A DNA stretch of 64,000 nt from Arthrobacter sp. 260 (lineage in GTDB: Bacteria > Actinomycetota > Actinomycetes > Actinomycetales > Micrococcaceae), in NCBI RefSeq assembly GCF_013116745.1, contig NZ_JABFOE010000001.1, positions 434,001 through 498,000 on the forward strand, read 5' to 3'. The position numbers and the translations under genes were made by a program. Positions 4,337-62,237 of the stretch are shown here, one piece after another. Under the pieces are notes generated by a model. It was not told the DNA's origin. It was given only the letters and a program-made list of their open reading frames with translations, and ran no database searches. Every line of letters begins with the position of its first letter. Position 1 is the stretch's first letter.

Positions 4337-4347
4337 ATTCTTAAAGA

Positions 4348-4379
4348 TAGGGCCCCCACGGTCATTCGTGGGGGCCCTA
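4348..4379. terminator. bidirectional intrinsic-type terminator
   Basis: TAGGGCCCCCACG (4348-4360) and CGTGGGGGCCCTA (4367-4379) form a perfect 13-bp stem with a 6-nt loop. It lies between the convergent DUF2550 and cold-shock genes, so it can end both transcripts. On the minus strand it is followed by a short T-rich run (CTTTAA). Confidence 0.88.
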
Positions 4380-4419
4380 CTCTTGAGAACTGGTCGACAG
4401 CGAGGACGACCGTCGGTTG

Positions 4420-4623
4420 CTACAGGGCGGTGACGCCAGTAGCCTGGGGGCCCTTGGCGCCCTGACCGATTTCGAACTGAACGCGCTGGTTCTCGTCAAG
4501 AGTCTTGAATCCGCCAGTCTGGATCTCAGAGTAGTGAACGAAAACATCGCCGTCGGAGTCGTCCGGGGTAATGAAGCCGAAGCCCTTTTCAGCGTTAAAC
4601 CATTTCACAGTGCCCTGTGCCAT
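4420..4623 (-). CDS. cspA: cold-shock protein, CspA family
   Basis: The 67-residue protein begins [18 protein letters not shown] and is a single cold-shock domain. RNP1 (KGFGFI) and RNP2 (VFVHYS) are intact, so it should bind single-stranded RNA or DNA and act as an RNA chaperone. A longer frame runs upstream, but the ATG at 4623 has a textbook GGAGGAG ribosome site seven bases away and gives the family N-terminus. The upstream 238 bp before nagA holds no gene; it probably contains a long leader, as in other csp genes. Confidence 0.96.
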
Positions 4624-4740
4624 TTGTTTCTCCTCCATAATGAAATGTTCAGTCCTACACACTGCGTGTAGTCCCGGGGTCACTCCACGGAAACAACCTA
4701 TCGGCACCTCTTGTACTTCGGTTCCGTTGGGAAGTCACAC

Positions 4741-54685: not shown

Positions 54686-54841
54686 ATGACTGAGCAGCCT
54701 GACCACGAGGACGCGAACGCCGACGAGAAGTCGAAGGGCCCCGACGGCACCATCCCGGAGTCCGAGGACGGCGTCGGCGCAGGAGTCACCGAGGATCCAT
54801 CGAGCTTTGAGCCCGAGGAACCTGCAGAAGAAGAAAACTAG
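54686..54841 (+). CDS. 51-residue acidic small protein
   Basis: MTEQPDHEDANADEKSKG begins a highly acidic protein (about 40% Asp/Glu) ending EPEEPAEEEN. AAGGAG lies four bases before the ATG, and the start is 17 nt after the reductase stop, so it is likely co-transcribed. There is no hydrophobic segment or Cys. Its TAG stop overlaps the kinase stop on the opposite strand within CTAG (54838-54841). Similar small acidic proteins are common in Micrococcaceae without known role. Confidence 0.7.
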   Translation: MTEQPDHEDANADEKSKGPDGTIPESEDGVGAGVTEDPSSFEPEEPAEEEN

Positions 54842-55833
54842 CCCAGTCTCGGGGCGTGGGCCGGTGGTGCGGGGATGTACACCTTGCCGGTGATGACGTT
54901 TCCGGTCACGATGCCATTGGTCATCACGCCGCCGGTCACCGGCTCCGACGGGTCTGCGGGCTCGTCGGAGCGCGTGCCGATCAAGGGCCTGAGCACCTTG
55001 CTCTCGTCGGCATCGAGTGCGTACTCCCGCAGGACCAGGGCCACTTCATGTGCATCGGGACGCTGCTGGGGATCGCGCGCAGTCATACTGGTGAGCAGGG
55101 TGCCCCACACCGGTCCCAGCGAGTCGGGAACCTCCGGGTCGCGCAGCAGTCTGGCCACCGCGGCTTCGACCACCGCACCCGGGAAGGCCTTCTGACCGGT
55201 GAGGCACTCCAGCAGGACCAGGCCGAGGGAGTAGATATCGGACTTGGCATCGACTACCGAACCGTGCGCCTGCTCGGGGCTGAGGTAGTTGGCGGTCCCG
55301 ATGGTGGCTCCCGTGGCGGTAGCCATGGTGGCATTCACCATCCGGGCAATCCCAAAATCGGTCAGCTTGGAATACAGCCGGGTGTCATGCTCCCCGGCCC
55401 GGTAAAGCAAAATGTTGGCGGGTTTCACATCACGGTGGATGACCCCCTGCGAGTGGATGTAGGCCAGCGCGTCGGCCAGGTCCGCACCAAGCTGCGCCAC
55501 CTCAAGAGGTTCCAGGCGCTCTGCCTTCAGCAGCTTCCGCAGGTCCCTGCCGTCGACAATTTCCATCACCAGGAAACTGGTGGTGCGGCCTGATTCGTCC
55601 TCGTGCAGACCCGCGTCATGCAGCGTGACCAGGCCCGGGTGGTTCAGCGTGGCCAACAACAGGGTTTCGGTGTGCTGGCGCCGGTAGTCGTCGTCATCCG
55701 ATGTGCTCGGATTGAACACCTTGACTGCGACATCGCGGCCAAGGTTCTCGTCGGTCGCCCGGTACACCGAGGACGCGCCGCCCGTTCCGAGCAGCTCAGC
55801 GGTCCTGTACCGCTGCCCTAACAGTTGGTTCAC
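54838..55833 (-). CDS. soluble Ser/Thr protein kinase
   Basis: The 331-residue protein has a complete Hanks-type kinase domain: GTGGASSVYRA loop, the AVKVF lysine, HRDVKPANILL, DFGIARM and GTANYLSPEQAHG. It lacks the transmembrane helix and PASTA/extracellular domain of PknB-type kinases. The last 35 residues form a repeated TGxVxTGxV pattern (VTGGVMTNGIVTGNVITGKV), suggesting a short beta structure after the kinase domain. GTG at 55833 is preceded by AAGGA. Confidence 0.93.
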   Translation of the reverse strand: MNQLLGQRYRTAELLGTGGASSVYRATDENLGRDVAVKVFNPSTSDDDDYRRQHTETLLLATLNHPGLVTLHDAGLHEDESGRTTSFLVMEIVDGRDLRKLLKAERLEPLEVAQLGADLADALAYIHSQGVIHRDVKPANILLYRAGEHDTRLYSKLTDFGIARMVNATMATATGATIGTANYLSPEQAHGSVVDAKSDIYSLGLVLLECLTGQKAFPGAVVEAAVARLLRDPEVPDSLGPVWGTLLTSMTARDPQQRPDAHEVALVLREYALDADESKVLRPLIGTRSDEPADPSEPVTGGVMTNGIVTGNVITGKVYIPAPPAHAPRLG

Positions 55834-55973: not shown

Positions 55974-56774
55974 CTACGCGTTGAGGAAGTCGATTGCCGC
56001 CTTCTTGAAGGCCCGTGAGGTGATGGCGTTGGTGTGGGTGCGGCCGGGGAGCCAGAGCGTCTCCGTCCTGTCGCTGAGAGCGGCGAGGTCGGGCATGGTG
56101 GCCGCCCGGTCGTCGTTTTCCCCGGCGACCAGCAGTAGCGGCATGTGCGGGACGGCCTCCGCGGCGGTGAAAGGCTCACCCTTGATGGCCTCGACCATGG
56201 TCAGTAACGCAAACACGTCGTGGGACGGCACCATCCGTGCCATCCGCAGCAGGTCGGCGGTGGAGGCGTCCTCCACCGGCGTGCCGTCGGTGAGGTGCCG
56301 CTGTGCGGCGGCGAGGTCGAAGTCGGCCAGCGGATCGGCCGATCCGGGACCGCCCAGCACCATGCGATGCACCAGCTCGGGCTGGGTGGCACCGAATTCC
56401 CAGGCCAGGCGCGAGCCGAGGGAGTAGCCGATAATGTCCACTCCGCTGTCCGGCGTGGCGTCATCGAGTGGAATGACGTGGGAGTCCTGCAGGAGCTGCA
56501 GGAGATCTGCCCGGATGCGGCTGGGCGCGTATGCGTCGCGCTCCTCGGGGGAGGCGCTGTTGCCGTGACCGGGTAGGTCAACGGTAATCACCCGGCGCCC
56601 CGCCTCGGTCAGTGCCCGAATCCAGCCGGTGTCCTGCCAGTTCAGTTTCGTTGAGGAGGCAAACCCGTGCAGCAGCAGCACCGGCCGGGAGGCCGACTCC
56701 TGCGCCGGGCTGTGTTCCTCAACGAACAAGTGCGGGTCAATGCCCTCTACCAGGTGGTCCCGGTGCCGTCCCAT
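55974..56774 (-). CDS. alpha/beta hydrolase, last gene of the dehydrogenase operon
   Basis: The 266-residue protein has VLLLHGFASS, VDLPGHGNS, nucleophile elbow IGYSLGSRLAW (Ser about 134), Asp in VAGENDD and His in PGRTHTNA. It follows the lipoyl gene by 26 bp in the same operon. In AcoC-type E2 proteins a lipoyl domain is fused to just such a hydrolase-fold acyltransferase, so this may be the detached catalytic half; alternatively it is an unrelated esterase. GAGGGAG upstream supports the ATG. Confidence 0.88.
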   Translation of the reverse strand: MGRHRDHLVEGIDPHLFVEEHSPAQESASRPVLLLHGFASSTKLNWQDTGWIRALTEAGRRVITVDLPGHGNSASPEERDAYAPSRIRADLLQLLQDSHVIPLDDATPDSGVDIIGYSLGSRLAWEFGATQPELVHRMVLGGPGSADPLADFDLAAAQRHLTDGTPVEDASTADLLRMARMVPSHDVFALLTMVEAIKGEPFTAAEAVPHMPLLLVAGENDDRAATMPDLAALSDRTETLWLPGRTHTNAITSRAFKKAAIDFLNA

Positions 56775-56800
56775 GTCGATCTCCCTCAGGTCAGAAGCGT

Positions 56801-57133
56801 CTAGTCGTCGTCGTCGTCGACGGGGCTCAGGCGCACCCGCCGTTTGGGTGCCTGCTCCTGCGGAACCGTTCCGACGATGCCTGCCGTATTGTCGGGGACC
56901 TCAAACACGATCAGTGGGTCACCGACCAATACCGTCTCGCCCGGCTCACCGTGAACCCTCACCACGACGCCGGCCTGCGGCGAGGGGAGCTCCACCGCGG
57001 ATTTAGTGGTCTCCACCTCGACCAGGGGCTGGTTGCGCTCGACGGTGTCACCCACGGCCACCAGCCATTCCAGCACGGTTGCCTCGATGAGGCCCTCACC
57101 CAGGTCGGGTAGCGGAAACGAAAGTTCAGCCAC
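56801..57133 (-). CDS. stand-alone lipoyl-domain protein (E2 fragment or carrier)
   Basis: The 110-residue protein is one lipoyl domain: MAELSFPLPDLGEGLIEATV, with the modified lysine at residue 44 in VEVETTKSAVELPSP and the closing PLIVFEV. A 30-residue Asp-rich tail follows (RVRLSPVDDDDD). No peripheral-subunit-binding domain and no CAT-like acyltransferase core are present; ordinary E2 is about 400 residues. The GTG start overlaps the E1-beta stop (GTGGCTGA), which excludes the longer frame. Confidence 0.88.
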   Translation of the reverse strand: MAELSFPLPDLGEGLIEATVLEWLVAVGDTVERNQPLVEVETTKSAVELPSPQAGVVVRVHGEPGETVLVGDPLIVFEVPDNTAGIVGTVPQEQAPKRRVRLSPVDDDDD

Positions 57134-58163
57134 GACGATGCTCCAATACTCGTTGAATGCCGAACAGGATCCGGTCGATGTTCGGCACGTACTCGTCTTC
57201 CAGATCACCGGAGGGGTAGGGAACGTCGAATCCTGTCACCCGTTCCACCGGTGCCTTCAGGACATTGAAACACTCCTCGGTCACCAGCGCAGCGATTTCG
57301 GCACCCAACCCGCTGGTGCGTGGCGCTTCATGCACGACGACGGCCCGCCGGGTCCTGGTCACCGAGGCGGCCAGGGCTGCGGTATCGATCGGTTTCAGCC
57401 AGCGCAGGTCGAGAACCTCGACGTCGATTCCGTCCTCGGCGGCGAGCTCGGCGACCTGCAGGCAGCGAGCCACCATGGCGCCCCACGCGATGAGCGTGAC
57501 GTGCCGCCCGGGACGCGCCACCCGCGCTCCCTCAAGCGTGCCACCGTCGGCTGTGTCGACCGGACCCTTCTGCCAGTACCTGGCCTTCGGTTCCATGAAG
57601 ATCACGGGGTCGGGTCGCCGGATGGCGTGCTTGAGCAGGTGGTAGGCCTGGTGCGGATCAGCCGGCGATACCACTTTCAACCCGGGCACGTGGGCGAAGA
57701 GGCTCTCCAGGCTTTCCCCGTGGTGTTCGGGTGCACGGATTCCGCCGAAGCTGGGGACGCGCAACGTGATGGGCATCGGGAGGGTGCCGCGGCTGCGGTA
57801 ATTCATCCGGCCGATCTGGCAGACAATCTGGTTCACGGCCGGGTAGGCGAATCCGTCGAACTGTACCTCGGGGATGGGATGGAACCCCGCCATGGCCAGA
57901 CCGACTGACATGCCGAGGATGCCCGACTCTGCCAGGGGGGTGTCGAACACCCGGTCTGCGCCGAACCGCTGCTGCAATCCGTCGGTGATCCGGAAGACGC
58001 CGCCCAGCTGCCCAACGTCCTCACCGAAGATGAGGGTTTTGGCGTTTTCTTCGAGCGATTCGGCAAGCGCCCGGTTCAGGGCCTGCTGCATGGAGAGGTG
58101 CTCCAGGTGGGACCCGGTCCCAGCCAGATCCGGTGCCGTGATCTCTGCTGTCTGCTCAGACAT
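57126..58163 (-). CDS. 2-oxoacid dehydrogenase E1 component, beta subunit
   Basis: The 345-residue transketolase-like protein begins MSEQTAEITAPDLAG and has NRALAESLEENAKTLIFGEDVGQLGG, FGADRVFDTPLAE, GFHPIPEVQFDGF and the C-terminal swivel domain (EVLDLRWLKPID, VVVHEAPRTSGLGAEI). It forms the ThDP-dependent E1 with the alpha subunit encoded just upstream; their genes overlap in ATGTCTGA. Best match in type is branched-chain 2-oxoacid or pyruvate/acetoin E1. Confidence 0.93.
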   Translation of the reverse strand: MSEQTAEITAPDLAGTGSHLEHLSMQQALNRALAESLEENAKTLIFGEDVGQLGGVFRITDGLQQRFGADRVFDTPLAESGILGMSVGLAMAGFHPIPEVQFDGFAYPAVNQIVCQIGRMNYRSRGTLPMPITLRVPSFGGIRAPEHHGESLESLFAHVPGLKVVSPADPHQAYHLLKHAIRRPDPVIFMEPKARYWQKGPVDTADGGTLEGARVARPGRHVTLIAWGAMVARCLQVAELAAEDGIDVEVLDLRWLKPIDTAALAASVTRTRRAVVVHEAPRTSGLGAEIAALVTEECFNVLKAPVERVTGFDVPYPSGDLEDEYVPNIDRILFGIQRVLEHRRG

Positions 58164-59187
58164 GCTCTGATTCCTCTCGCCAGGTGGTTTCCTGGTGCTG
58201 CAGTGCCGGGGTGGTCTCCTGGAAGACGTATCTGAACATGTCGGCACCGGGTCGCGGCGCGAGGGATTCAAGGCCCTCGCGGACGCGCTCGGCTTCCGCC
58301 TCGGCGTCGGCGAAGACCGACTCGAAGTAGTCGTCACCGGTCCCGTAGGCGGTGCGGAGCAGGTCCGCGCACCGTTGCACAGGGTCGAGGCTGCGTGCGG
58401 CCTGCTCATCGGCGAGGGAGCGGTACCGGCCTGGATCGTCGCTGGTGGAGTGGGGGCCCAGGCGATACGTAGTGGCTTCGATCAGCATCGGCCCGTTGCC
58501 GGCGCGGCAGTGCCCGATGGCCTGCCGGGTGGCAGCGAGGACGCTGACGACGTCGTTCCCGTCCACTGCGAGCGACGGCATTCCGTAACCCGCGGCGCGG
58601 GCGGCAACGGCGCCGCCGGCCACCTGCGCGGCGGTGGGGACAGAGATGGCCCAGCCATTGTTCTGTACAAAGAAGACCACCGGCGCCTTCATCACTGCGG
58701 CAAAGTTCATCGCCTCGTGGACGTCGCCCTGGGAGCTGGCGCCGTCGCCGAAGTAGGTGAGGGCGACACCGGTCCCGGCGCCGTGAACCGGCTCGTGCTG
58801 GGCCAGGGTCTGTCCGTGGGCCCACCCGACGGCGTGCAACACCGAGCCCGCGACGACTGCCTGGATCGGGGCCAGGTGGGTGGCGGCGGGGTCATAGAGG
58901 CCGCCATGCCAGGTTGCCTTGTGGGTGGCCATGTACTGAACCATGTCAACGTTCATGGCCCGGGCGACGCCCATTTCCCGATAGGTGGGGAAAACGAAAT
59001 CGCGGGCGGTGTCGACGGCGTAGCCGCTACCCACCTGGGCAGCCTCCTGTCCCAGCAGCGGAGCGTAACCGGGGATGATGCCCTGCCGCTGCCAGCGTAC
59101 GGCAGCAATGTCCAGCTGACGCACTCTGACCAGTAACTCGTAGAGCTTCGTCAGTTCCTCCTGGGGAGGGGTGGGCGTGGAATTCAT
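58156..59187 (-). CDS. 2-oxoacid dehydrogenase E1 component, alpha subunit
   Basis: The 343-residue subunit has LLGQEAAQVGSGYAVD, the ThDP/Mg motif YFGDGASSQGDVHEAMN, NNGWAISVPT and YRLGPHSTSDDP. The last is typical of branched-chain oxoacid E1 alpha. AAGGA precedes ATG 59187; a longer frame is not needed. The operon E1 alpha-E1 beta-lipoyl-hydrolase is divergent from an Lrp/AsnC regulator, consistent with amino-acid or oxoacid control. Confidence 0.93.
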   Translation of the reverse strand: MNSTPTPPQEELTKLYELLVRVRQLDIAAVRWQRQGIIPGYAPLLGQEAAQVGSGYAVDTARDFVFPTYREMGVARAMNVDMVQYMATHKATWHGGLYDPAATHLAPIQAVVAGSVLHAVGWAHGQTLAQHEPVHGAGTGVALTYFGDGASSQGDVHEAMNFAAVMKAPVVFFVQNNGWAISVPTAAQVAGGAVAARAAGYGMPSLAVDGNDVVSVLAATRQAIGHCRAGNGPMLIEATTYRLGPHSTSDDPGRYRSLADEQAARSLDPVQRCADLLRTAYGTGDDYFESVFADAEAEAERVREGLESLAPRPGADMFRYVFQETTPALQHQETTWREESEHV

Positions 59188-59484
59188 TGCCGTCCTTATG
59201 ATGGGGATCACTCTGCTGCAGTGACGGTACGTCTTCGGAGTGGTCACTGCAATCTGTGTATAAGAACCTAAGCACTATGTAGAGAATCGGTGAGGGTTTC
59301 CGGTGATCACTGCACAAAGTGTTCGTTAGACTGGAAATCGACCGACACAAAAAAAGCGACAGGAGCACGTGCGCCGTCGAACCCACCCCTGCCGCTTGGT
59401 CGTTAGACCAATGACTGTGACAGTAGTCACTAATTCACTGTGACACAACACGGGCCGATACCCGGCGTGTCCGAGAGGTAGCAC
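59188..59484. promoter_or_regulatory. intergenic region with five GTGA/TCAC dyads
   Basis: The 297-bp gap between the divergent E1-alpha and Lrp/AsnC genes has no gene. It carries TCACT-N7-AGTGA (59208-59224), AGTGGTCACT (59239-59248), GTGATCAC (59303-59310), GTGAC-AGTA-GTCAC (59417-59430) and TCAC-N9-GTGA (59427-59443). Repeated, phased half-sites are what an oligomeric Lrp/AsnC protein would bind; the match to a CRP-like TGTGA site is also possible. Confidence 0.55.
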
Positions 59485-59967
59485 ATGTCCATTGACCCGC
59501 TCGACTCCCGTATCGCTGAGCTATTCACTGATGATCCGCGGATGAGCGTGCTGGAGGCGTCGCGGCGTCTGTCAGTTGCCCGGGCGACCATTCAGGCGCG
59601 TCTGGACCGGATGCAGCGCGACGGTGTGATTGCCGGCTGGGGTCCTCGGATCGAGCCGCGCAGCCTGGGCTACCCGGTGGTGGCGTACTGCTCACTGACC
59701 ATCCACCAGGATTCCGGACACGATGCCGTCTCCACGGCGCTTGCGAAGATCCCCGAAATCCAGGAGGTGCACACTGTGTCGGGGGAGAGTGACCTGCTCG
59801 CCAAGGTGGCAGCGCGGTCCAATTCGGATCTCCAGCGAGTGATCGACGCCATCATCGCCACGCGGACTGTCGTGCGCTCGTCGACTGTCATTGTGCTCAA
59901 CACCCACTTCGAGGGGCGCACCCTTCCGCTGATGCGGGCTGCTGCGGACCGGGACACGACGGGCTAA
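59485..59967 (+). CDS. Lrp/AsnC-family transcriptional regulator
   Basis: The 160-residue protein has the N-terminal HTH (DSRIAELFTDDPRMSVLEASRRLSVARATIQARLDRMQRDGVIAG, residues 5-50) and a RAM ligand domain (VVAYCSLTIHQDSG, EVHTVSGESDLLAKVAARS). It is divergent from the dehydrogenase operon and probably controls it. GAGAGG precedes the ATG. Confidence 0.93.
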   Translation: MSIDPLDSRIAELFTDDPRMSVLEASRRLSVARATIQARLDRMQRDGVIAGWGPRIEPRSLGYPVVAYCSLTIHQDSGHDAVSTALAKIPEIQEVHTVSGESDLLAKVAARSNSDLQRVIDAIIATRTVVRSSTVIVLNTHFEGRTLPLMRAAADRDTTG

Positions 59968-60021: not shown

Positions 60022-60073
60022 TTGGAGAACCGGCTATTTGCCGCTAAAATTAGTTATAGTCACTCTGACATTA
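60022..60073 (+). promoter_or_regulatory. promoter and NrtR-like operator of the nad operon
   Basis: TTGGAG (60022-60027), a 17-bp spacer and TAAAAT (60045-60050) form the promoter. Just at the expected transcription start lies TATAGTCACTCTGACATTA (60055-60073), with a perfect GTCA-CTC-TGAC core and flanking AT pairs, as in NrtR sites. A repressor here would block nrtR-nadABC together. Confidence 0.6.
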
Positions 60074-60138
60074 AGTCGGATGTAAATCATTCAGCGGCAC
60101 CAGCAGCAATGCATTCGGCGCAGGATCGAGGGGAACCA

Positions 60139-60921
60139 ATGTACGGAGGTGTGACCTATACGGATGCGGCGAACGTCTCTGAGCGGCAGCTGCAGCCTCC
60201 CGCACTGGCCATTTCCACAGTGATCTTCGCCCTCCGACCCAGTGTGACATCGGGCCGCCCCACCCTCTGGCTACCGCTCGTCCGCCGGATCAGGCAACCG
60301 CATCTGGGCAAGTGGGCATTGCCGGGCGGTCCGCTCGCCCAGATCGAATCACTTCAGGACGCGGCATCCCGCAACCTGAAGGAAACCACTGGACTGGTGC
60401 CCAACTATCTGGAACAGCTGTACGCGTTCGGTGGGCTCGACCGGGCGGCCACGCAACGTCTCGTCTCGATCGTCTACTGGGCGCTGGTCCAGCCCGACGA
60501 GGCGGCGCTCACCCAGGAGTCCGAGAACGTGAGATGGTTCCGGGCGGACAAGCTGGAGGACCTCGCGTTCGACCACAACTCAATCGTTGACTACGCGCTC
60601 TGGCGGTTGCGCAGCAAGATGGAGTACGGGTCGATCGCCTACCACTTCCTCGGCGAAACCTTCACGCTGGCGCAGGTCCGGGAGGTCTACGAGGCGGTGC
60701 TGGACCGGCACCTGGATCCGGCGAACTTCCGGCGTCAACTCCGCGCCACCCCGGACATTACGCCCACCGACGAGTACCTGCAGGGAGTCCGCCACCGCCC
60801 GCCCCGGCTGTACCGCTACACGGGGACCGCCAGCACCCTCGGCACCCAGGCCGCCCCGACGCCTGCCTCCACTACCTCCAGCACCGCCCCCACTGACCAG
60901 ATTTCCAGGAGCCTCCCATGA
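60139..60921 (+). CDS. nrtR: NrtR-type Nudix-related regulator of NAD synthesis
   Basis: The 260-residue protein joins a Nudix-like effector domain (STVIFALRPS, LGKWALPGGPLAQIESLQDAASRNLKETTGL, residues 20-160; the degenerate REUXEE box indicates loss of hydrolysis) to a C-terminal winged helix (SIAYHFLGETFTLAQVREVYEAVLD, NFRRQL). NrtR senses ADP-ribose-type ligands and represses NAD genes. It directly precedes nadA with ATGA overlap. GAGGGG precedes ATG 60139; the frame is open to 60022. Confidence 0.9.
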   Translation: MYGGVTYTDAANVSERQLQPPALAISTVIFALRPSVTSGRPTLWLPLVRRIRQPHLGKWALPGGPLAQIESLQDAASRNLKETTGLVPNYLEQLYAFGGLDRAATQRLVSIVYWALVQPDEAALTQESENVRWFRADKLEDLAFDHNSIVDYALWRLRSKMEYGSIAYHFLGETFTLAQVREVYEAVLDRHLDPANFRRQLRATPDITPTDEYLQGVRHRPPRLYRYTGTASTLGTQAAPTPASTTSSTAPTDQISRSLP

Positions 60922-62237
60922 CCAGTGTCGCCACCGCCATCGAGCTTGTGACCCGTGAACAAGCACTGTCCCGTGAACAAGCACTGTCGCGTGAACAAGC
61001 ATTGACCGGGCGCGCTACCACCTGCTCGCCCGCCCTCGCCAAGGACCCGTGGACGGTTGACCGGGAGGTGGCACCCACCTATGGGCCCGGCGCCTCGATG
61101 GGTGACAGGGCTCCGGCCACCACGCCCCGGCAAGGGGAGCTGCCAGAGGAGTACCGCCTCGCCACCGACGCTGAGCTGGACGCGCGGATCCTGTCCGCGA
61201 AGGCCACGCTGGGGGACCGGGCAGTCATTCTCGGTCACTTTTATCAGCGGGACGAGGTGGTCAGGTACGCCGATTTCGTGGGAGATTCCTACCAGCTGGC
61301 ACGAGCCGCCACCGAGAAGACAGCTGCGGAAGCGATCATCTTCTGCGGCGTCCACTTCATGGCCGAGACTGCCGACATGCTCTCCCGGCCTGAGCAGGCG
61401 GTCATCCTTCCCAACCTCGCTGCCGGCTGCTCGATGGCCGATATGGCCGATATCGACTCCGTGACCGATTGCTGGGAGGACCTGGCGGAGTTGTTCGGGA
61501 CCGAGCCCGACGCCGACGGGCGGGTCCCGGTCATCCCTGTCACCTATATGAACTCATCGGCCGCGCTCAAGGGGTTCTGCGGGCGGAACGGCGGTATTGT
61601 CTGCACCTCCTCGAACGCGGCTGCAGTTCTTGAATGGGCGTTCGAGCGCGGGCAGCGTGTCCTGTTCTTCCCCGACCAGCACCTCGGCCGGAACACAGCC
61701 AAAGCCATGGGTGTGCCGCTGGAACAGATGCCCCTGTGGAACCCGCGCAAGCCGCTCGGCGGTAACAAGGAGGCCACCCTGCAGGACGCGAAAGTCATCC
61801 TGTGGCACGGCTTCTGCTCCGTACACAAGAGGTTCTCGGTGAACCAGATCGACAAGGCCCGGGCCGAATTCCCTGGCGTCCGGGTGATCGTGCACCCGGA
61901 ATGCCCCATGGAAGTGGTGGACGCAGCCGACGAGGCCGGCTCCACCGACTACATCCGCAAGGCAATCGAAGCCGCCGCACCGGGCACCACCTTCGCCGTC
62001 GGCACCGAAATCAACATGGTCAACCGGCTCGCTGCCCAGCACCCCGAACACACCATCTTTTGCCTGGACCCGGTGATCTGCCCCTGCTCCACCATGTACC
62101 GGATCCACCCCGGCTATCTGGCCTGGGTTCTTGAGGCACTGGTCAACGGGAAGGTCCTGAATCAGATCACCGTCGATGAATCCGTGACGGCCCCGTCCCG
62201 GGTGGCACTTGAGCGTATGCTCGCCGTGCAGCCATGA
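60918..62237 (+). CDS. nadA: quinolinate synthase
   Basis: The 439-residue iron-sulfur enzyme condenses iminoaspartate with DHAP. Core motifs: LGHFYQRDEVVRYADFVGDSYQLAR, IIFCGVHFMAETADML, SAALKGFCGRNGG, HPECPMEVVDAADEAGSTD and PVICPCSTMYRI with the cluster cysteines. The first about 75 residues are a variable extension containing three REQALS/T repeats (residues 13-30). Starts in an ATGA overlap with nrtR and ends in one with nadB. Confidence 0.96.
   Translation: MTSVATAIELVTREQALSREQALSREQALTGRATTCSPALAKDPWTVDREVAPTYGPGASMGDRAPATTPRQGELPEEYRLATDAELDARILSAKATLGDRAVILGHFYQRDEVVRYADFVGDSYQLARAATEKTAAEAIIFCGVHFMAETADMLSRPEQAVILPNLAAGCSMADMADIDSVTDCWEDLAELFGTEPDADGRVPVIPVTYMNSSAALKGFCGRNGGIVCTSSNAAAVLEWAFERGQRVLFFPDQHLGRNTAKAMGVPLEQMPLWNPRKPLGGNKEATLQDAKVILWHGFCSVHKRFSVNQIDKARAEFPGVRVIVHPECPMEVVDAADEAGSTDYIRKAIEAAAPGTTFAVGTEINMVNRLAAQHPEHTIFCLDPVICPCSTMYRIHPGYLAWVLEALVNGKVLNQITVDESVTAPSRVALERMLAVQP
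60954..61007 (+). repeat. three 18-bp in-frame tandem repeats in nadA
   Basis: CGTGAACAAGCACTGTCC, the same with final G, and CGTGAACAAGCATTGACC stand head to tail (60954-60971, 60972-60989, 60990-61007). Each adds six residues (REQALS, REQALS, REQALT) to the nadA N-terminal extension. Confidence 0.9.

What the first reader, a model, noticed from the sequence alone, without database searches (positions are those of the whole stretch)
55974..57133. Split, AcoC-like E2: a lone lipoyl protein followed by a separate alpha/beta hydrolase
Seen: the operon has E1 alpha, E1 beta, a 110-residue single lipoyl domain, then an alpha/beta hydrolase 26 bp later; no subunit-binding domain and no CAT-type acyltransferase. 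Known: in acetoin dehydrogenases AcoC is one protein made of a lipoyl domain plus an alpha/beta-hydrolase-fold domain. Inference: here the two halves are encoded separately, giving an E2 that must work as a free lipoyl carrier plus a soluble acyltransferase or thioesterase.
Basis: partly seen in the sequence, partly recalled or inferred. Interest (0 to 1): 0.7.

Follow-up and report, generated by a model that had tools for sequence, protein, structure and literature searches.

The report
E2-less ketoacid dehydrogenase operon with hydrolase
A soil-bacterium operon makes the first enzyme of a ketoacid dehydrogenase, a stand-alone lipoyl carrier and a hydrolase but no normal second enzyme, and the set is conserved in relatives, which suggests an unusual way of unloading the carrier.

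Summary
In detail: E1 alpha, E1 beta, a 110-residue lone lipoyl protein and an alpha/beta hydrolase, with no subunit-binding or CAT domain in the operon. The layout is conserved: 80 of the 80 closest named E1-alpha relatives (of 537 found) have the four genes in order; in one (L069) E1 beta and lipoyl are frameshifted.

'Split AcoC' is not supported. The lipoyl protein reads as a branched-chain/pyruvate-type E2 cut off before its subunit-binding domain (60% identical to one in the same genome, 37-38% to AcoC), and E1 beta is far from AcoB. The hydrolase forms its own clade; a sister relation to AcoC is neither shown nor rejected.

Dependence is one-way. No lipoyl cassette examined lacks an adjacent hydrolase, but 28 of 34 congeners have the hydrolase and no matching E1 alpha; in the 23 of these loci that were read, E1 and lipoyl are missing beside it. 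The hydrolase tree needs about 10 such changes, at least 7 on well-supported branches. Best reading (0.4): a core-less 2-oxoacid dehydrogenase whose acyl-lipoyl carrier is unloaded or cleaned by a lipoyl thioesterase of the kind shown for human ABHD11. Lipoylation, substrate, thioesterase activity and product are inferred, not shown.

The parts
58156..59247 (-). E1 alpha subunit, TPP-dependent 2-oxoacid dehydrogenase (likelier start ATG 59187)
   Evidence: PF00676 225 bits; best solved relative human BCKDH E1 alpha, 178 bits
57126..58163 (-). E1 beta subunit
   Evidence: PF02779/PF02780; best solved relatives bacterial PDH and 2-oxoacid dehydrogenase E1 beta; 36-38% to AcoB, 48-49% to three own paralogs
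56801..57133 (-). stand-alone lipoyl protein, lipoyl lysine K44, tail IVGTVP..KRRVRL
   Evidence: PF00364 72.5 bits; 73-85% identity in a 16-row sample, K44 invariant; tail motif in 79 of the 79 copies that could be read, the 80th being frameshifted
55974..56774 (-). alpha/beta hydrolase, triad S118-D221-H247, proposed acyl-lipoyl thioesterase
   Evidence: PF00561; triad invariant in 130 of 130 rows, 126 of them distinct; AlphaFold2 model mean pLDDT 91.3
59485..59967 (+). divergent Lrp/AsnC-type regulator upstream of E1 alpha
   Evidence: PF01037 61 bits; found in 79 of 80 named loci, the exception L084 beginning near its contig edge

Best explanation
This is a 2-oxoacid dehydrogenase operon that has lost the E2 core. 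E1 decarboxylates an amino-acid-derived, perhaps branched-chain, 2-oxoacid and acylates the free lipoyl protein. The adjacent serine hydrolase removes acyl groups from the lipoyl arm by hydrolysis, either as the main product step (free carboxylic acid, no CoA) or to clear stuck adducts, and a shared E3 encoded elsewhere reoxidises the arm. Shown here: gene order, domain content, conservation, intact catalytic triad, one-way dependence of E1-lipoyl on the hydrolase, and E2-type kinship of the lipoyl protein. Inferred: lipoylation, substrate, thioesterase activity, product, use of a shared E3.
For: Order E1a-E1b-lipoyl-hydrolase in 80 of 80 named loci; the hydrolase starts within 46 nt of the lipoyl stop in 73 of 80 and E1b and lipoyl overlap by 8 nt in 78 of 80. 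A hydrolase follows the lipoyl gene even where it has diverged to 38-39% identity (L160, L161). Triad S118, D221, H247 invariant in 130 of 130 rows. The with/without label changes 10 times on the hydrolase tree, at least 7 forced by starred branches; with AcoC and other hydrolases as outside rows the deepest hydrolase branches are all 'with', so loss of E1-lipoyl with the hydrolase kept is the simplest account, and the enzyme then has targets other than this carrier, possibly full E2s such as the three in this genome. Precedent: purified human ABHD11, an alpha/beta hydrolase, releases glutarate from a glutaryl-lipoyl E2 peptide and showed no activity on glutaryl-CoA (PMC12643935, sections 7 and 11 read). 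An Lrp/AsnC gene (79 of 80) and an amino acid permease match (64 of 80) accompany the cassette.
Against: No activity data. Sequence and fold searches give only generic alpha/beta hydrolases: best NCBIfam match MenH at 55.4 bits against a cut-off of 208.55; the 50 Foldseek hits shown are assorted esterases, peroxidases, epoxide hydrolases and MenH at 15-22% identity. No comparison with the ABHD11 sequence was made, and ABHD11 itself had no significant effect on succinyl-lipoyl peptide. Retention of the hydrolase without lone lipoyl could equally mean an unrelated small-molecule substrate. The full E2s in the genome could accept acyl groups from the lone lipoyl protein in trans.
Confidence: 0.4

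Rival explanations
1. AcoC-like acyltransferase: the hydrolase moves the acyl group from the lone lipoyl protein to CoA, so the pair is a functional split E2, by descent or convergence.
For: Fused lipoyl-hydrolase AcoC proteins lie beside E1 genes in the 4 of 4 such loci fetched; NF011457 is the second-best NCBIfam match of the hydrolase, 45.8 bits; a hydrolase-AcoC sister clade is not rejected, AU p 0.28.
Against: Lipoyl protein and E1 beta are not AcoC/AcoB-like; hydrolase present without a matching E1 alpha in 28 of 34 congeners; lipoyl and hydrolase are separate ORFs in the 79 named loci where the lipoyl gene could be read.
Confidence: 0.2
2. Borrowed core: the lone lipoyl protein is unloaded by the CAT domain of one of the full E2s in the same cell; the hydrolase acts on another metabolite of the same pathway, such as an acyl-CoA or ester, and is only co-regulated.
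For: Three full bkd/pdh-type E2s in the genome; the amino acid permease stays with the hydrolase in 8 of 11 fetched family loci that lack E1-lipoyl.
Against: The lone lipoyl protein has no subunit-binding domain, and the strict adjacency of a hydrolase to E1-lipoyl is then unexplained.
Confidence: 0.25
3. The hydrolase is an ordinary enzyme of unrelated function, for example MenH-like, that happens to sit next to the cassette.
For: Best NCBIfam match is MenH; the GYSxGxR stretch around the nucleophile recalls MenH (recalled, not from a call); 0 of 57 genomes have a MenH over cut-off, so a divergent MenH is conceivable.
Against: 55.4 bits against a cut-off of 208.55. No lone-lipoyl cassette examined lacks the hydrolase: 80 of 80 named, 7 of 7 in-genus and 9 of 9 fetched loci, partly the same genomes. 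The four genes sit together in the two Cryobacterium loci too, where no nadA, nudix or kinase match was found.
Confidence: 0.15

Closest known systems
Acetoin dehydrogenase E2, AcoC (NF011457/PRK14875)
   Same: Combines a lipoyl domain and an alpha/beta hydrolase with an E1 alpha/beta pair
   Different: One fused chain; lipoyl domain 37-38% identical to the lone protein in 3 of 4 compared, no useful match in the fourth; E1 beta 36-38%; hydrolase in another clade
CAT-type E2 of branched-chain/pyruvate dehydrogenases (own C111, C128, C172)
   Same: Lipoyl domain 47-60% identical and a similar [LI][VI]G[YT]G to RRxR linker, IVGTVP to RRVRL in the lone protein
   Different: Lone protein ends before the subunit-binding domain and has no CAT domain
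ABHD11, human glutaryl-lipoyl thioesterase (PMC12643935: outline and sections 7, 11 read; PMC7426941: three passages seen)
   Same: Serine alpha/beta hydrolase; acting on acyl-lipoyl groups is shown for ABHD11 and proposed here
   Different: Mitochondrial; kinship beyond the fold not tested; activity of the bacterial enzyme unknown
Haloferax volcanii 2-oxoacid dehydrogenase operon with an unattached lipoyl domain (recalled; two papers asked for, neither held)
   Same: E1 genes beside a free lipoyl protein, as recalled
   Different: No alpha/beta hydrolase recalled; archaeal

Membership tests
AcoC (NF011457) | lipoyl and hydrolase domains in one polypeptide | tested here: not met
   Separate ORFs in the window and in the 79 of 80 named loci where the lipoyl gene could be read
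AcoC (NF011457) | score over the curated cut-off of 307 bits | tested here: not met
   lipoyl protein 52.8 bits, hydrolase 45.8 bits
AcoC (NF011457) | AcoA/AcoB-type E1 partner | tested here: not met
   E1 beta 36-38% to four AcoB, 48-49% to three own paralogs; branch to AcoB 100/100
AcoC (NF011457) | hydrolase related specifically to AcoC C-termini | tested here: inconclusive
   Separate 100/100 clades; sister relation not rejected, p 0.28
AcoC (NF011457) | acyl transfer from lipoyl to CoA | not testable with these tools
   Needs purified protein
CAT-type E2 | lipoyl domain with lipoyl lysine | tested here: met
   PF00364 72.5 bits; K44 invariant in 16 rows
CAT-type E2 | peripheral subunit-binding domain | tested here: not met
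   No such Pfam match in 110 aa
CAT-type E2 | 2-oxoacid_dh catalytic domain | tested here: not met
   PF00198 matches in the genome lie elsewhere; no match to the own CAT domains within 4 kb after lipoyl in 80 of 80 named loci
Heterotetrameric 2-oxoacid dehydrogenase E1 | E1_dh plus Transket_pyr/Transketolase_C subunits | tested here: met
Heterotetrameric 2-oxoacid dehydrogenase E1 | substrate (branched-chain vs pyruvate) | tested here: inconclusive
   E1 alpha's nearest solved relative is human BCKDH, those of own C111 and C172 are bacterial PDH (C128 not compared), but E1 beta's nearest is bacterial PDH; a weak hint only
ABHD11-type lipoyl thioesterase | alpha/beta hydrolase fold with Ser-Asp-His triad | tested here: met
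   Model mean pLDDT 91.3; S118, D221, H247 in 130 of 130 rows
ABHD11-type lipoyl thioesterase | sequence kinship to ABHD11 | not tested
   ABHD11 sequence was not obtained
ABHD11-type lipoyl thioesterase | releases acid from acyl-lipoyl | not testable with these tools
   Needs assay
MenH (TIGR03695) | score over the curated cut-off | tested here: not met
   55.4 of 208.55 bits

The most novel reading that the evidence does not exclude
A CoA-independent, hydrolytic 2-oxoacid dehydrogenase: E1, a free lipoyl carrier, an acyl-lipoyl thioesterase and a shared E3 convert 2-oxoacid, NAD+ and water to carboxylic acid, CO2 and NADH, with the hydrolase also serving the cell's other lipoyl complexes, a bacterial counterpart of ABHD11.
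Probability: 0.22. Interest if true: 0.8.

Novelty: new variant of a known kind. Interest (0 to 1): 0.5.

Why it matters
From general knowledge, lipoyl-dependent dehydrogenases are built on a large E2 core that hands the acyl group to CoA. An operon conserved across much of a bacterial family that keeps E1 and the lipoyl carrier but has a hydrolase in place of the core is a natural test of whether core and CoA are needed, and would offer a simple bacterial system for studying lipoyl deacylation.

Tried and rejected
Split-AcoC descent: lipoyl and E1 comparisons speak against it; the hydrolase phylogeny is too deep to decide. The comparison rows of that tree were picked by AcoC and MenH models, so they are expected to sit near AcoC; L183, a partial AcoC hit, was left out.

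First idea that the hydrolase is an unrelated older resident beside which a cassette inserted: set aside, because the deepest hydrolase branches and the two Cryobacterium loci carry all four genes, so loss is the better account. Weak points: this is the hydrolase's own gene tree, not a species tree; the outgroup was my choice; 23 of the 34 'without' rows come from one genus; named and unnamed rows are partly the same genomes.

Counts are lower bounds: only about 5 or 6 candidates per genome were scored, and G266 was a false negative for E1 alpha. One search scored all candidates. The 30 in-genus loci reach only about 1.5 kb on each side.

Fold search gave generic alpha/beta hydrolases. Promoter and terminator scan gave nothing beyond chance. 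Ten literature searches showed no description of this operon among the papers listed; the library is open-access only, lists were capped at 20, and papers not named next were seen only as listings. PMC12643935: outline and sections 7 and 11 read; PMC7426941, PMC9239090, PMC8305020 and PMC6067878: passages only.

Full report
Observation. On the minus strand the window encodes E1 alpha, E1 beta, a 110-residue lipoyl protein and an alpha/beta hydrolase, overlapping or 26 bp apart. The lipoyl protein matches Biotin_lipoyl (and marginally HlyD_3) and ends where a normal E2 would go on to the subunit-binding domain. A divergent Lrp/AsnC gene lies upstream. The rest of the genome has three further E1 alpha/beta pairs, each followed by a full E2, plus SucB and Kgd, and seven Pyr_redox_dim proteins, the domain found in E3. 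So the cell has complete E2s; this operon lacks one.

Conservation. The 80 best of 537 E1 alpha relatives were kept, and all 80 were examined: 80 of 80 have E1a, E1b, lipoyl and hydrolase in order on one strand, and none shows a match to the own CAT domains within 4 kb after lipoyl. Most records are named Arthrobacter, Paenarthrobacter or Pseudarthrobacter, with Psychromicrobium, two Cryobacterium and one MAG labelled Acidobacteria. The lipoyl protein is 73-85% identical to the window's in a 16-row sample; its tail motif is present in 79 of 79 readable copies, the 80th, L069, being frameshifted. A profile of the lipoyl protein found it at E 1e-36 in 18 of 396 genomes of the order: 17 in the window's family and one in another family.

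One-way dependence. In the window's genus 34 of 34 other genomes have the hydrolase and 6 of 34 have the matching E1 alpha, so 28 of 34 have the hydrolase alone. Thirty in-genus loci were read: 7, the window's own included, have lipoyl and E1 beside the hydrolase; 23 show neither, and 22 of those 23 still have the nudix or kinase neighbour. Family-wide, E1 alpha was found in 116 of 395 and the hydrolase in 267 of 395 (lower bounds); 114 of the 116 have the hydrolase by the cut-off, and the other two carry a diverged hydrolase right after the lipoyl gene. Of 12 fetched family loci that seemed to lack E1 alpha, 11 do lack E1 and lipoyl there and one has them. On a tree of 130 hydrolases (126 distinct) the label changes 10 times, at least 7 forced by starred branches; in the tree with outside hydrolases the deepest branches are 'with', so repeated loss of E1-lipoyl with the hydrolase kept is the simplest account. 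In Arthrobacter sp. Bz4 (L069) E1 beta and lipoyl are each frameshifted while the hydrolase is intact, a loss under way or an assembly error. R30, G69 and A231 are kept in at least 90 of 96 rows with the carrier and in 21-23 of 34 without it, a lead for a carrier contact, though shared ancestry could also explain it.

Origin. [quoted passage not shown] the fourth AcoC (L217) gave no useful match. Its tail, IVGTVP then RRVRL, resembles the LVGYG/LVGTG/LIGYG then RRxR linker that precedes the subunit-binding stretch in the three own bkd/pdh-type E2s. This points to an E2 cut off after the linker. E1 beta of the cassette is one 100/100 clade and lies with the own paralogs, away from AcoB. The hydrolase clade (100/100) lies outside AcoC (100/100), but the AU test rejects neither hydrolase plus AcoC (p 0.28) nor hydrolase plus MenH-like (p 0.23) as a clade.

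Mechanism. The triad is invariant and the HGF stretch nearly so (F38 is L in 2 of 130), and the model is a confident alpha/beta hydrolase, so the enzyme should hydrolyse or transfer acyl groups. ABHD11 shows that such a fold can be an acyl-lipoyl thioesterase that does not act on glutaryl-CoA (PMC12643935). Two facts fit that kind of role: the lone carrier was never seen without the hydrolase, and the hydrolase outlives the carrier, in cells that may well have other lipoyl complexes (checked only for the window's own genome). Whether hydrolysis is the main product step or a clean-up step is open. The Lrp/AsnC gene and an APC-type amino acid permease (best model GABA permease, 391-476 bits in three copies, below its 678 cut-off) suggest an amino-acid-derived substrate. 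E1 alpha is nearest human BCKDH among solved structures while own C111 and C172 are nearest bacterial PDH (C128 not compared); E1 beta is nearest bacterial PDH, so the substrate class is not settled.

Verdict. A real, conserved variant of the 2-oxoacid dehydrogenase system, analogous to AcoC but not shown to descend from it.

Noticed in passing
window 4345-4736, - strand: cspA thermoregulator RNA (RF01766) at 79.8 bits, just over its cut-off of 78.
   Followed up: no
window 54838-55833: Ser/Thr protein kinase gene downstream of the hydrolase on the same strand; a match lies beside the hydrolase in 28 of 30 in-genus loci, with or without the E1-lipoyl genes.
   Followed up: partly
window 60022-62237: NrtR-type Nudix regulator followed by a gene that I name nadA from recall; matches to the two lie in 73 and 71 of the 80 named loci.
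   Followed up: no
L069 7070-8424 (Arthrobacter sp. Bz4): E1 beta and the lipoyl gene are each frameshifted while the hydrolase is intact; decay or assembly error.
   Followed up: partly
L143 (contig of a MAG labelled Acidobacteria): Micrococcaceae-like gene order on a short low-coverage contig, probably misbinned.
   Followed up: no
genome C161:169106-169324: A second short biotin/lipoyl protein (open frame 85 aa), function unclear, possibly a biotin carrier.
   Followed up: no
L073 4268-5764 and equivalents: APC amino acid permease between the Lrp gene and E1 alpha in relatives (a match in 64 of 80 named loci), not at the window's locus, and present in 8 of 11 fetched family loci that lack E1-lipoyl.
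   Followed up: partly
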